Source: Gallionella sp. (GTDB lineage: Bacteria; Pseudomonadota; Gammaproteobacteria; Burkholderiales; Gallionellaceae). Taken from it: a stretch of 64,000 nt of DNA. Every line of letters begins with the position of its first letter. Within the stretch, counting starts at the first letter, position 1. The position numbers were made by a program, and so were the translations under genes. The stretch is from positions 49,958-113,957 of the forward strand of contig JANXXX010000021.1 in assembly GCA_025350405.1 (NCBI GenBank), in the 5' to 3' direction. The notes beneath the pieces are model-generated. The model searched no databases. It saw only the letters and a list, made by a program, of their open reading frames with translations, and was not told the DNA's origin. Shown one piece after another: positions 593 to 55,550 of this stretch.

Positions 593-736
593 AGGGTGCC
601 TCTATAAATTCAAAATCCTAAGCGAGACAAGACGCGAATGAAATTTTTGCGCGCCGCATATGTTTGATATGTAAACAGTAAGAATTCTTGGGTAACGCAG
701 TATCGTGACGGGGTTTGGATTTATAGTGGGACCCTC
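593..736. repeat. Palindromic MITE-like element, copy A (divergent)
   Basis: AGGGTGCCTCTATAAATTC...GCGCCGCATATGTTTGATATG...GGATTTATAGTGGGACCCT; ends are inverted repeats; shares core and termini with copies at 24779 and 55412. Confidence 0.7.
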
Positions 737-24557: not shown

Positions 24558-24764
24558 ATGGCCCGTATTACCGTCGAAGAATGTCTCACCCAAATCCCGA
24601 ATCGCTTTGAGCTGACCCTGGTCGCCGCCTATCGCGCACGCCAATTGGCCAATGGTGCGGCGCATCTGGTAGACAACAGCAAGGACAAACCAACCGTCAT
24701 CGCATTGCGTGAAATCAGCGAAGGCAAGGTCGGCAAGGAAATCTTGAATCGCGGTCAAGCGTAA
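24558..24764 (+). CDS. rpoZ: RNA polymerase omega subunit
   Basis: 68 aa; [30 protein letters not shown]. Confidence 0.95.
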
Positions 24765-24778
24765 TCGACTTAATTTCA

Positions 24779-24978
24779 AGGGTGCCTCAAAAAATTCAGA
24801 GTTCGCCCAAATGCCCCACAAGGGGACGCCGATCCACTACGGGCGAAAGCAGCCCGTGCGGAGTCGTCAGCAAGGCGTGAAAAAATTTCACAGCGCCGCA
24901 TATGATTGATATGTTAGCAAGAAATTTTTTTCGCAACGCAGCAGTTGGGATTAAATCTGGATTTTTAGAGGTACCCTT
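24779..24978. repeat. Palindromic MITE-like element, copy B (with ~55 bp internal extra sequence)
   Basis: AGGGTGCCTCAAAAAATTCAGAGTTCGCCCAAATGC...CAGCGCCGCATATGATTGATATGTTAGCAAGAAATTTTTTTCGCAACGCAGCAGTTGGGATTAAATCTGGATTTTTAGAGGTACCCT; nearly the same as copy C. Confidence 0.85.
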
Positions 24979-24980
24979 AA

Positions 24981-27095
24981 ATGGCCGACACAGATCTACT
25001 GATCGAGGAACTCTCCACCTATCTTAAACCGAAGGATGTCGAACACGTCCGTGTAGCGATTGAATTCAGCCGTGCGGCGCATCAGGGCCAGATGCGCCAA
25101 TCCGGCGATCCGTATATCTCCCATCCGATTGCCGTCGCGCGCATCCTGACACCGTTGCATATCGACGCGCAGGCGATCATCGCGGCGCTGTTGCACGATG
25201 TAGTCGAAGACACCGAGATCACCAGCGAACAAGTCGCCAAGAAATTCGGCAAGCCGGTGGCCGAATTGGTCGATGGCCTGAGCAAACTGGACAAGATCCA
25301 GTTCGAGACGCGCGAAGACGCGCAGGCGGAAAACTTCCGCAAGATGCTGCTGGCAATGGCGCGCGACGTACGCGTCATTCTGATCAAGCTGGCCGACCGC
25401 CTGCACAATATGCGCACGCTCGAATCCATGCCACCCGACAAGCGCGAGCGCATTGCGCGCGAGACCATGGAAATCTACGCGCCGATCGCCAACCGGCTCG
25501 GCCTGAACGACCTGCACCACGAACTGCAAGACCTCAGCTTTAAATATCTGCGCCCCACTCGCTACGCGGTACTGGCAAAAGCCCTGCTGGTGGCACGCGG
25601 CAATCGCCGCGAAGTGCTCGGCAAGATACTGGTGGCGATACGGCAACGGCTCGCCGAACACCACATCGAGGCGGATGTCACCGGCCGCGAGAAGAACATC
25701 TACAGCATTTACAAAAAGATGCAGAGTAAGTCGCTGGCATTTTCCGAGGTGCTGGACATCTATGGTTTCCGCGTGCTGGTGAATGACTTTGCCTCCTGCT
25801 ACGTGGCGATGGGCGTGCTGCATGGTTTATACAAACCGATCCCCGGCAAGTTCAAGGATTACATCGCCATCCCGAAATTGAATGGCTACCAATCACTGCA
25901 TACCACGCTGTTCGGCCCGTTTGGCACGCCCATCGAGATCCAGATACGCACCCACGAGATGCACCGGATCGCCGAGGCCGGCGTCGCTTCGCACTGGCTG
26001 TACAAGAGCGGCCATGATTCGATCAACGACCTGCACAAGAAAACCCACCAGTGGTTGCAGGAACTATTGGAAAGCCTGAGCCAGAGCAACGACTCATCCG
26101 AATTTCTCGAGCATCTCAAGGTGGACCTGTTCCCCGATGAAGTGTATGTCTTTACGCCCAAGGGCAAGATACTTTCGCTGCCGCGCGGTGCGACTGCGGT
26201 GGACTTCGCTTACAGCGTGCACACCGACATCGGTAATCGCTGCATCGCCGTCAAGGTGAACCATGAGCTGGTGCCGTTACGCACCGAACTCAGGAATGGC
26301 GACCGCGTGGAAGTCGTCACCGCCGCACATGCCCACCCCAATCCCAGCTGGCTGAGTTATGTCACCACCAGCAAGGCGCGCAGCCAGATCCGCCATTTCC
26401 TCAAGACCATGCAGTCCGGTGAATCGGCACAACTCGGCGAGCGTCTGCTCAACCAGGCGCTGCAGTCGCTGGGCGTCAAACCGCAAGACATCAGCGAAGC
26501 GCATTGGCATAAGTTGCTCAAAGATACCGGGGTAAAAACGCGCCAGGACATTCTGGCCGACATCGGCCTGGGCCGCCGCCTCAACATGGTCGTGGCACGG
26601 CAGCTGGCCAGCACCGGTGAAATGGTCGCCAATGAAACGGCCGCCCATTCAGTCATCACGATACAAGGCACAGAGGGCATGGCGGTGCAGTTCGCGCAAT
26701 GTTGCCATCCGATCCCGGGCGACCCGATCGTCGGCGTGATCAAGAGCGGGCAAGGCTTGCTGGTGCACACCCACGACTGCCCGACCCTGCGCCGGGGGCG
26801 CAGCAGCGGCGAGCAATGGCTGGATGTAGCATGGGACAAGAACATCCACCGCCCCTTCGCTGTCAATATCAAACTACTCGTTGCCGATCAGCGTGGCGTG
26901 CTGGCAAAGATTTCCGCCGCGATCGCCGAGGCGGACGCCAACATCGAGAACATCAACTTCACCCACGAAGGCGAATACTCCGGACTGCAATTCACGCTGG
27001 AGGTGAACAACCGTTTGCACCTGGCCAACATCATGCGTGGCTTACGCAAGATACCGGAGGTGGTGAGGATCATTCGGGTGAAGAATGTTTCGTGA
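24981..27095 (+). CDS. spoT: Bifunctional (p)ppGpp synthetase/hydrolase (SpoT/RelA family)
   Basis: 704 aa; HD motif HDVVEDTE, synthetase YKPIPGKFKDYIAIPKLNGYQSLHT, TGS and ACT domains. Confidence 0.93.
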   Translation: MADTDLLIEELSTYLKPKDVEHVRVAIEFSRAAHQGQMRQSGDPYISHPIAVARILTPLHIDAQAIIAALLHDVVEDTEITSEQVAKKFGKPVAELVDGLSKLDKIQFETREDAQAENFRKMLLAMARDVRVILIKLADRLHNMRTLESMPPDKRERIARETMEIYAPIANRLGLNDLHHELQDLSFKYLRPTRYAVLAKALLVARGNRREVLGKILVAIRQRLAEHHIEADVTGREKNIYSIYKKMQSKSLAFSEVLDIYGFRVLVNDFASCYVAMGVLHGLYKPIPGKFKDYIAIPKLNGYQSLHTTLFGPFGTPIEIQIRTHEMHRIAEAGVASHWLYKSGHDSINDLHKKTHQWLQELLESLSQSNDSSEFLEHLKVDLFPDEVYVFTPKGKILSLPRGATAVDFAYSVHTDIGNRCIAVKVNHELVPLRTELRNGDRVEVVTAAHAHPNPSWLSYVTTSKARSQIRHFLKTMQSGESAQLGERLLNQALQSLGVKPQDISEAHWHKLLKDTGVKTRQDILADIGLGRRLNMVVARQLASTGEMVANETAAHSVITIQGTEGMAVQFAQCCHPIPGDPIVGVIKSGQGLLVHTHDCPTLRRGRSSGEQWLDVAWDKNIHRPFAVNIKLLVADQRGVLAKISAAIAEADANIENINFTHEGEYSGLQFTLEVNNRLHLANIMRGLRKIPEVVRIIRVKNVS

Positions 27096-27177
27096 TTTTG
27101 TAGGGCGGGTTCCACCCGCCAATTAAGGCCGTTCGCCCTGAGCTTGTCGAAGGGTCAACGACCAAACCAAAGTCAAA

Positions 27178-27398
27178 ACCGCCGGGGGTAGCCCGGCAGC
27201 TAGTCACTTTTTCTTGCTTCGCCAAAGAAAAAGTAACCAAAAAGAAGGCGACCCCGGTTTGCCGCCCCTGCGGGGTACCCTGCGTTGCTCAACTGGTCAG
27301 GCGGCTGCGGAACTCGCGCTACGCGCTCAGACAGTCCTCGCCGAAATCCCCTGACCAGCCTGCGATACTCGGCGGCGCACAGGGGATGAAAAACCTAA
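27178..27398. repeat. Left arm of a ~220 bp inverted repeat flanking the HNH ORF
   Basis: ACCGCCGGGGGTAGCCCGGCAGCTAGT...CCCCTGACCAGCCTGCGATACTCGGCGGCGCACAGGGGATG; reverse complement recurs at 28500-28731, >90% identical by eye. Confidence 0.85.
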
Positions 27399-27457
27399 AA
27401 CCTTAAAATCGTATGGTGGGCACGATGTACCCACCATTTATAGAATTGCATTTTTCA

Positions 27458-28396
27458 TTACCATTTTTTGTTAAATCCGACTCCCAAAGCAATGGGTGAG
27501 CAGTGGAGAAAAAACGCTCCATCTTCTGTTTCTTCAAATGACTTTAATTGCAGAAGCGCTGCACAGTTCTTGTGTCCAGAAAAAGAGACCGTCATCGAAG
27601 TTGTTCCGAACATATCCATAGTGTCCACATAAAACTCTACCGAAATATTTTGTCGAGATGTTCTAACACGGCGATGCTGATTCTCTTTCGTCTCTTCAAG
27701 GTTTTTGAAAAAAAACGCCCTATCAAGAAAAATGCAGTCACCTGGATTAATTAGCTCAAGAATGTCAGCTTTCGTCCAATTTTCTGTTTCAAGGTGAATG
27801 GGCTGAACCATTCTGCTGATTTGATCTACGAATGCTGAATAAACAAGGTGCAGTCTTTGATCATCACCATGATCATACCAATCGTAAACAGAATTACGAA
27901 TGTAGTTACTTGATGCGGGTGTATTGACTGGTTTAATCAGTATACCCTTTGAATCAATAATTCCTCTTGTCTTGCAATACTCAAAATACTGCTTGTCAGC
28001 AACACTCAATAAATCTGGTTTGGCGAGCTGCCCAACTCGCCGATGATTGATATAGCCCCAAGTAAGTCCGATAGATGCGAGTGAACTATTACCAGCTATC
28101 GATAATTGACCTGAGACGGTCGCAGCCGAGTCTCGCTTATTTTTAACTTTCGCTATCCACTTTTGTTTTGCGTCCCGTAATGCTTCTGCGCTCAGGTTTT
28201 GCGACAATTGACGACGAGTATGTGCTTCATCATGATGTGAAGTACAGAGACAAATTAGATTTTCTTCAATATTGTTTGAATGGTTACCATCAATATGGTG
28301 AATATGGCAAGCTTGCTGCTGACAGACCGAGCATACGTATTGGCTGTCATACATGATCCTGTATTTGAGTTCTTTGGGAATTTTGGGTCGCGTCAT
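27458..28396 (-). CDS. HNH endonuclease domain protein
   Basis: YVCSVCQQQACHIHHIDGNHSNNIEENLICLCTSHHDEAH (CxxC, HH..N..NL.CLC..HH); start at ATG 28396 (MTRPKIPKEL) likelier than the track start 28486. Confidence 0.8.
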   Translation of the reverse strand: MTRPKIPKELKYRIMYDSQYVCSVCQQQACHIHHIDGNHSNNIEENLICLCTSHHDEAHTRRQLSQNLSAEALRDAKQKWIAKVKNKRDSAATVSGQLSIAGNSSLASIGLTWGYINHRRVGQLAKPDLLSVADKQYFEYCKTRGIIDSKGILIKPVNTPASSNYIRNSVYDWYDHGDDQRLHLVYSAFVDQISRMVQPIHLETENWTKADILELINPGDCIFLDRAFFFKNLEETKENQHRRVRTSRQNISVEFYVDTMDMFGTTSMTVSFSGHKNCAALLQLKSFEETEDGAFFLHCSPIALGVGFNKKW

Positions 28397-28467
28397 GTAT
28401 TCAAACTGGATTAGGCCAAGCCCAGAATGTACCGGAGTCGAATTGTTTTGGCTATCTACCTTTGTAT

Positions 28468-28489
28468 GGTGTGCAACTCGTTGCACACC
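28468..28489. promoter_or_regulatory. Perfect palindrome upstream of the HNH gene (hairpin or operator)
   Basis: GGTGTGCAAC-TC-GTTGCACACC. Confidence 0.4.
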
Positions 28490-28499
28490 GTATGGGTTT

Positions 28500-28731
28500 C
28501 AGGTTTGGGGTTTTCGCTTTACCTCCCCTGAGCGCCGCCGAGTAGCGCAGGCTGGTCAGGGGATTTCGGCGAGGACTGTTTGAGCACGCAGTGCGAGTTC
28601 CGCAGCCGCCTGACCAGTCGAGCAACGCAGGGTACCCCGCAGGGGCGGCAAACCGTGGTCGCCTTTTCTTTGGTTACTTTATTTTGGCGAAGCAAAAGAA
28701 AGTAACTAGCTGCCGGGCTACCCCCGGCGGT
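28500..28731. repeat. Right arm of the ~220 bp inverted repeat flanking the HNH ORF
   Basis: Reverse complement of 27178-27398: CTCCCCTGAGCGCCGCCGAGTAGCGCAGGCTGGTCAGGGG...CTAGCTGCCGGGCTACCCCCGGCGGT. Confidence 0.85.
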
Positions 28732-28803
28732 GTTGACTTACCCCCTCTCCCCAACCCTCTCCCGCGAGGGGAGAGGGAGTGGCTGTACCCCGGCGAAGTT
28801 GAT

Positions 28804-31795: not shown

Positions 31796-32284
31796 TTAGT
31801 TCGGCTTGCCGATTCCTGGTGTAGGAAAAGGCCATGTTGCAGCCGGACGTACTGGTGCTGGAGCAGAAGGAGCCGGTGCAGCTGGACGAGATACCGCCGC
31901 ATGAACTGCCGGTTTTGCTGCTGGCTTCTTTGCTACCTTCTTCGCAGCTGGCTTTTTAGCAGCGGCTTTTTTCGCAGCTGGCTTTTTAGCAGCGGCTTTC
32001 TTTGCTGCCGGCTTCTTCGCTACTGCTTTTTTCGCAGCTGGCTTTTTAGCAGCGGCTTTCTTTGCTGCTGGCTTCTTCGCTACTGCTTTTTTCGCAGCTG
32101 GCTTTTTAGCAGCGGCTTTCTTTGCTGCCGGCTTCTTCGCCGCTACTTTTTTCTTCGCAGCTGGCTTTTTAGCAGCGACTTTCTTTGCTGCCGGCTTCTT
32201 CGCCGCTACTTTTTTCTTGGCTGCCGGTTTTTTAGCTGCCGTTGCCTTCTTTGCTGCTGGTTTTGCTTTCTTCGTTGCTACCAT
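31796..32284 (-). CDS. Lys/Ala/Pro-rich histone H1-like (AlgP/Hc-type) nucleoid protein
   Basis: 162 aa; tandem KKPAAKK(A/V)AAKKPAAKK repeats; Pro/Ala-rich C-terminus. Confidence 0.85.
31930..32270. repeat. ~60-bp tandem repeat tract within the histone-like gene
   Basis: GCTTTTTAGCAGCGGCTTTCTTTGCTGCCGGCTTCTTCGCTACTGCTTTTTTCGCAGCTG repeats at 31981, 32041 and 32101 with few differences. Confidence 0.9.
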
Positions 32285-55411: not shown

Positions 55412-55550
55412 GAGGGCCTCAAAAATTCAGAGTTCGCACAAATGCAAGGCGCGGAACAAATTTCGCAGCGCCGCATATGAATTATATGTAAGCAAGAAAT
55501 TTTTTACGCAACGCAGCAGTTGGGATGAAATCTGGATTTTAGGGGCCCTC
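55412..55550. repeat. Palindromic MITE-like element, copy C, between moaD and moaE
   Basis: GAGGGCCTCAAAAATTCAGAGTTCGCACAAATGCAAGGCG...CAGCGCCGCATATGAATTATATGTAAGCAAGAAATTTTTTACGCAACGCAGCAGTTGGGATGAAATCTGGATTTTAGGGGCCCTC. Confidence 0.85.

What the first reader, a model, noticed from the sequence alone, without database searches (positions are those of the whole stretch)
24779..24978. MITE-like palindrome whose terminal repeat supplies a Shine-Dalgarno at the spoT start codon
Seen directly: a 200 bp element (copy B) fills the rpoZ-spoT gap. Its right terminal inverted repeat reads TTTTTAGAGGTACCCTTAA and the spoT ATG follows immediately, so AGAGG inside the repeat sits at SD distance. Copies A and C do the same at mshM and moaE. 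Three of three copies in 64 kb placed this way suggests selection for, or targeting of, translation-initiation sites, or an element acting as a portable 5' UTR. I know of no described element with this property in this group, but I could not search.
Basis: partly seen in the sequence, partly recalled or inferred. Interest (0 to 1): 0.78.

Follow-up and report, generated by a model that had tools for sequence, protein, structure and literature searches.

The report
Gallionella MITE lodged at gene boundaries
A short, hairpin-forming piece of mobile DNA that depends on a larger jumping gene sits exactly between two genes of an iron-oxidising bacterium, and about a third of its relatives sit right against a gene's start; the ribosome-binding-like motif there is part of the element's own end sequence and looks like a by-product of where it can land, although some copies show signs of later adjustment.

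Summary
Copy B (24780-24976) is a 197-bp imperfect palindrome ending 4 nt before the spoT ATG, with GAGG in its terminal repeat 9 nt upstream of that ATG. The spoT start is conserved in relatives, and their empty site (GATTTTAAATGG) shows a 4-bp TTAA duplication. The element is a non-autonomous IS5-family MITE of Gallionella: ~12 copies here, up to ~30 per related genome, 40 in a genome of another family. Autonomous IS5 elements (1.28-1.34 kb) with the same 16-bp ends and 4-bp duplications exist in both groups.

Of 98 distinct Gallionella insertions, 32 abut a start codon (5.4 expected per bp) and 47 abut a stop codon (7.8 expected). Start adjacency is mostly explained by lodging in very short operon gaps: 28 vs 22.4 within the same gaps, 3 vs 2.7 in gaps >40 nt, and only 2/38 among young copies elsewhere. 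Stop adjacency persists in young copies (11/38).

The GAGG belongs to the transposase-recognised end, is not significantly better conserved at starts, and is predicted fully base-paired. So "targeting of start codons" and "selected portable SD" are not supported; a tolerated, possibly post-insertion-tuned 5' UTR is. Start-adjacent junctions are remodelled (5/32 intact duplications vs 25/35).

The parts
24780..24976 (+). MITE copy B, 197 bp: 141-bp core plus one ~55-nt hairpin module
24776..24779 (.). left target-site copy TCAA (mutated from TTAA)
   Evidence: empty sites GATTTTAAATGG in relatives
24977..24980 (.). right target-site copy TTAA, directly before the spoT ATG
24780..24795 (+). left terminal inverted repeat GGGTGCCTCAAAAAAT
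   Evidence: shared with autonomous IS5-family elements
24961..24976 (-). right terminal inverted repeat GGGTACCTCTAAAAAT (top strand ATTTTTAGAGGTACCC)
24968..24971 (+). GAGG, the SD-like motif, 9 nt before the spoT ATG; predicted paired with the left end
24814..24869 (+). approximate extent of the extra hairpin module (CCCCACAAGGGGACGCCGAT...GGAGTCGTCA), also in L002 and several relatives
24558..24764 (+). rpoZ (RNA polymerase omega); stop 15 nt before the element
24981..27095 (+). spoT; start conserved in relatives
594..734 (.). MITE copy A (divergent subfamily) between mshL stop and mshM start, genes on the minus strand
55414..55548 (.). MITE copy C between moaD stop and moaE start, genes on the minus strand

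Best explanation
The element is a non-autonomous MITE moved by an IS5-family (DUF772/DDE_Tnp_1) transposase that recognises the 16-bp end GGGNNCCTCTAAAAAT, inserts at a palindromic AT-rich target (about C|TTAA|G) and duplicates 4 bp (ends, target and duplication shown by sequence; mobilisation inferred). The GAGG is simply the inside-out reading of that shared end. At rpoZ-spoT the element entered TTAA immediately upstream of ATG, so the duplication left the start codon intact and GAGG fell at SD distance (shown). Copies pile up at gene boundaries because TTAA-like sites there can be duplicated without damaging either gene, because stop codons are somehow favoured, and because operon-gap insertions are tolerated (pattern shown, cause inferred). 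In the mRNA the element folds into one long hairpin that loops itself out, so the upstream stop and the downstream start stay close across its base. Downstream translation then continues by reinitiation or coupling, helped by GAGG only when a terminating ribosome opens the hairpin base (inferred from folding). Junctions at start codons differ from those elsewhere and look remodelled (shown statistically; cause unknown). The SD-like motif is thus a by-product that makes such insertions tolerable, rather than a feature the element is selected for.
For: Autonomous IS5 copies with the same ends and 4-bp duplications in G039 (L302-L307) and in Gallionella G005, G091 and G061. 4-bp duplications: 41/105 perfect vs 4.1 expected in Gallionella, 30/38 in G039. 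Target logo aC-TTAA-Gt. Empty spoT sites in relatives, a second insertion of another subfamily at spoT (L215) and a deletion scar (L212). Positional statistics against per-bp, target-matched and same-gap nulls. GAGG not better conserved at starts. SD paired in the full transcript, mean unpaired probability 0.06, rising to 0.35 only when the upstream stop is within 6 nt of the element and a terminating ribosome is modelled.
Against: Start-adjacent junctions differ from other copies although the element bodies are equally diverged: 5/32 vs 25/35 perfect duplications, and palindromic extension by 2 bp in 18/32 vs 9.5 expected. That hints at selection on the new 5' UTR or a second insertion mode. 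Elements abut the same start (hisH, lpxK, ntrC, spoT) in several genomes, some perhaps independently. At B the rpoZ stop is 15 nt away, so simple ribosome melting would not free the SD. Looping-out is a prediction only.
Confidence: 0.62

Rival explanations
1. Portable 5' UTR: the terminal repeat's GAGG is the working SD of spoT and of other host genes, and copies at start codons are kept because deleting them would remove the SD.
For: GAGG(U) can pair with the anti-SD (-7.2 to -8.0 kcal/mol, at least as good as native spoT GUGAUU at -6.3). Spacings of 5-10 nt at 30+ housekeeping starts. At ntrC several native genes carry AGG-type SDs that the element replaces. Start-adjacent junctions are remodelled.
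Against: GAGG conservation at starts is not significantly higher, p = 0.28. The motif is predicted paired, unpaired probability about 0. Body divergence does not show start-adjacent copies to be older. No excess over the same-gap null in gaps >40 nt.
Confidence: 0.2
2. Targeted insertion: the transposase or its target complex prefers translation-initiation sites.
For: 32/98 start-adjacent vs 5.5% for target-matched random non-disruptive positions.
Against: Disappears within gaps >40 nt (3 vs 2.7), is low in perfect-duplication copies (5/37) and in young copies of G039 (2/38 vs 2.3-2.7%).
Confidence: 0.05
3. Preference for stop codons: the real positional signal is the 3' end of genes, by target choice (a TTAA/TAA-rich palindrome) or rapid selection, and start adjacency follows in short operon gaps. 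(This is compatible with, and partly contained in, the best explanation.)
For: 47/98 stop-adjacent vs 8% expected; 19 vs 4.9 in gaps >40 nt; 11/38 vs 2.5-2.8% in young G039 copies. Eight upstream genes end on the TAA inside the terminal repeat or one base from it.
Against: No molecular reason found for preferring stop codons over other TTAA sites. Part of the signal could be tolerance rather than targeting.
Confidence: 0.5
4. Mobile promoter: transcription starts inside the element core, giving an mRNA with only the right arm and a freer SD.
For: Two promoter-like matches inside B vs 0.3 expected, one with an extended -10. GAGG unpaired probability would rise from 0.001 to 0.16.
Against: The B -35 hexamer (TTCACA) reads TTCGCC in the family consensus. 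The conserved ATATG is the hairpin apex. Consensus matches are weak evidence.
Confidence: 0.1

Closest known systems
IS5-family-derived MITEs (non-autonomous elements sharing IS5-type ends)
   Same: short, no ORF, terminal inverted repeats and 4-bp target duplication identical in kind to autonomous IS5 elements of related genomes
   Different: only the ~16-bp ends are shared; the interior is a long palindrome with exchangeable hairpin modules; strong lodging at stop and start codons
ERIC/RU-1 and YPAL/RU-2 of enterobacteria (review PMC2229807)
   Same: about 130-170-bp palindromic MITE-like elements in intergenic, co-transcribed positions; proposed ribosome-induced change in element RNA
   Different: different sequence and ends; the reported effect is on upstream mRNA stability, not on downstream start codons
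Pneumococcal BOX elements (PMC3049150)
   Same: modular hairpin repeats that supply stop codons to upstream genes (36 cases reported)
   Different: BOX-encoded ORFs lacked good SDs; different structure
Coxiella QMITE2 (PMC5896051)
   Same: 150-190-bp MITE mostly in 3' UTRs, can extend an upstream gene
   Different: 7-11-nt direct repeats; no start-codon association reported

Membership tests
MITE | short, multi-copy, no coding capacity, terminal inverted repeats | tested here: met
   141-bp core, ~12 copies in own genome, 20-31 matches in several relatives, 40 in G039; no conserved ORF seen
MITE | target-site duplication | tested here: met
   4 bp; 41/105 perfect vs 4.1 expected, 30/38 in G039; spoT empty site
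IS5-derived MITE | autonomous partner with the same ends encoding an IS5 transposase | tested here: met
   1335-bp elements in G039 and 1279-1335-bp in Gallionella genomes; NF033581 IS5, DUF772 + DDE_Tnp_1. No partner with these ends was found in the window's own genome
IS5-derived MITE | mobilisation by that transposase | not testable with these tools
   inferred from shared ends and duplications; needs a transposition assay
Portable Shine-Dalgarno element | SD motif at functional distance of host starts | tested here: met
Portable Shine-Dalgarno element | SD motif under selection at starts | tested here: not met
   GAGG intact 27/34 vs 77/113, p = 0.28; low power
Portable Shine-Dalgarno element | SD motif accessible in the mRNA | tested here: not met
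   predicted paired; prediction only
Known Rfam RNA family | match above gathering score | tested here: not met

The most novel reading that the evidence does not exclude
A MITE whose transposase-recognised ends double as translation punctuation (GAGG as SD, TAA as stop). Copies entering operon junctions become the 5' UTR of essential genes, fold themselves out so that stop and start stay coupled, and are then tuned at the junction, making the element hard to lose.
Probability: 0.22. Interest if true: 0.75.

Novelty: new member of a known kind. Interest (0 to 1): 0.48.

Why it matters
It gives a natural, many-copy experiment on how operons tolerate a ~140-200-bp stable hairpin between a stop and a start codon, in genes such as spoT, lpxK, a nuoB-like gene, hisH and pheS, and on whether transposon ends can serve as translation signals. 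If the SD or loop-out function were shown, it would be a new way for mobile DNA to be domesticated as 5' UTRs; as it stands it is a well-defined new IS5-type MITE family of iron-oxidising bacteria.

Tried and rejected
Rfam scan of the window: no family. Literature: no paper with 'miniature inverted-repeat' and 'Gallionella'; no described element with a start-codon SD property found, but most subscription papers, including the original ERIC paper, are not held. Age by body divergence: start-adjacent and other copies have the same divergence (0.057), so 'older copies are retained at starts' is not shown. RNA-level selection by G-U versus A-C changes: the bias follows the element's own strand, not the direction of host transcription, and related copies are not independent, so it was not used. 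The per-bp null is inflated by genes my simple hexamer caller missed, so the same-gap null is given more weight. The 2-bp 'AT' junctions could be 2-bp duplications or remodelled 4-bp ones; hisH and lpxK empty sites did not settle it.

Full report
What is there. The rpoZ-spoT gap (24765-24980) holds a 197-bp imperfect palindrome at 24780-24976, flanked by TCAA and TTAA, followed at once by the spoT ATG. It folds at -89 kcal/mol, far below shuffles (z -8.3). The GAGG of its right end lies 9 nt before the ATG. Pfam confirms SpoT, RpoZ, MoaE, MoaD and the neighbours of two further copies, glucokinase and YqeY. Copies A and C are as described, but A is a diverged subfamily and C lacks two bases at both ends.

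The spoT start is real. In relatives the sequence ATGGCCGA is conserved from the ATG on, while the upstream sequence varies. Their empty sites read GATTTTAAATGGCC, so the element duplicated TTAA and the left copy later became TCAA. G022 also carries the element there (with another module), G052 a copy of another subfamily at almost the same place (GGGGCACCCTTGT|ATG), and G046 a deletion scar (TTTAAGGGTGCC). Native spoT has a non-canonical SD-like GTGATT, predicted to pair slightly less well with the anti-SD.

Family and partner. There are about 12 copies in the window's genome and up to 31 matches per genome in 17 of the other 24 same-genus genomes searched. A genome of another family in the order (G039) has 40 copies at 84-100% identity to its own type. 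Record titles of the 80 further loci are mostly Gallionella and Gallionellaceae. End-pattern searches found pairs 1335 bp apart in G039. These are elements with 16-bp ends GGGCATCTCTAAAAAT, mostly 4-bp duplications and an IS5-family transposase (split into two overlapping frames in the copy read, L302). Relatives of this transposase in Gallionella genomes G005, G091 and G061 have long open frames and lie in 1279-, 1322- and 1335-bp elements with GGGCACYTCTAAAAAT-type ends and TTAA/TTTA duplications. The MITE shares only the ends. Duplications are 4 bp: 41/105 perfect vs 4.1 by shuffling, and 30/38 in G039. The target logo is aC-TTAA-Gt. I therefore file it as an IS5-derived MITE; mobilisation itself is inferred.

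Position. Using 80 Gallionella loci fetched by an internal-core pattern plus others, I mapped 110 distinct insertions and called genes with a hexamer model that ignores SDs. Of 98 with both neighbours, 32 have an end within -2..+5 nt of a start and 47 within -2..+6 of a stop. Non-disruptive random positions matched for target tetranucleotide give 5.5% and 8.0%. Within the very gap each element occupies, start adjacency is only 28 vs 22.4 expected and, in gaps >40 nt, 3 vs 2.7; stop adjacency is 41 vs 29.2 and 19 vs 4.9. In G039, where copies are young, starts are 2/38 (2.3-2.7% expected) and stops 11/38 (2.5-2.8% expected). So the general signal is stop codons and short operon gaps, and start adjacency mostly follows from them. 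The start-adjacent genes are nonetheless striking; by their N-terminal sequences they include lpxK, hisH, hisB, hisZ, pheS, dapE, dxs, ispG, ntrC, lolB, lolD, a nuoB-like gene and spoT (names from the sequence, only some checked against Pfam). Elements sit at the same start in several genomes (hisH, lpxK, ntrC).

Does the SD work? The motif is dictated by the shared transposon end. It is intact in 27/34 start-adjacent ends and 77/113 distant ends (p 0.28). In the full transcript it is paired with the left end (unpaired probability 0.00 in most copies). Modelling a ribosome terminating at the upstream stop frees it partly (mean 0.35) only when that stop is within ~6 nt of the element, because the footprint then covers most of the nine terminal bases GGGNNCCTC that pair with GAGGNNCCC. 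At spoT the stop is 15 nt away and the SD stays paired, while the ATG itself is open. The more likely route is that the hairpin loops itself out and reinitiation or coupling proceeds across its base; this is inference.

An unexplained point. Start-adjacent copies have perfect duplications in 5/32 cases against 25/35 for distant copies, although element bodies are equally diverged. Their junctions are extended palindromically by two bases in 18/32 vs 9.5 expected, mostly AT|GGG...CCC|AT before the start. This could be selection on the new 5' UTR, palindrome-templated repair, or a 2-bp insertion mode. It is the best remaining hint that these insertions are functionally engaged.

Verdict. A true and well-placed observation; the mobile-element reading is right. 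'Targeting of' or 'selection for' initiation sites by the SD is not supported by the tests I could run, and the property is best seen as a by-product that eases tolerance, with a minority chance of genuine 5' UTR domestication.

Noticed in passing
window 27170-28739: Long inverted repeats (178 and 62 nt arms, 90% complementary) flank a 342-aa ORF on the minus strand (27458-28486) just downstream of spoT. No Pfam hit, but an HNH-like HHIDGNHSNN...HDEAH stretch is visible; perhaps a mobile unit.
   Followed up: partly
L056, L058, L062, L064, L076, L105, L125, L136, L158 and others; window 24814-24869: The MITE carries exchangeable hairpin modules (about 39-61 nt: CCCCACAAGGGG..., ATAACCAGCCACTTGG..., GCGAGCATCCGC...TTGCCTGCTTACCCC, TAGTTCCGGCTAACC...) at recurring positions, sometimes nested; one type also occurs in G039 elements.
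   Followed up: no
L309 (~465-500), L310, L311: Minimal palindromes: the two ends are joined with only 4 bp between (36 bp in all), or spaced 68 or 110 bp, in G013; deletion derivatives or even smaller mobile forms.
   Followed up: no
L036 ~1493-1634, L111: Element at the start of what looks like a MacB-type permease gene, with its right end eroded; possible absorption into the 5' coding region.
   Followed up: partly
Gallionella copies with stop distance -12/-11 (e.g. L042, L141, L146, L162): Upstream genes read into the element and end on the TAA of CCTCTAA in the terminal repeat, or one base from it.
   Followed up: partly
G039 and Gallionella copies: Stop-codon adjacency beyond target composition in both young and old copies; no mechanism known to me.
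   Followed up: partly
window 31883-32239: Array of 15-bp-spaced direct repeats (13 overlapping copies), apparently coding.
   Followed up: no
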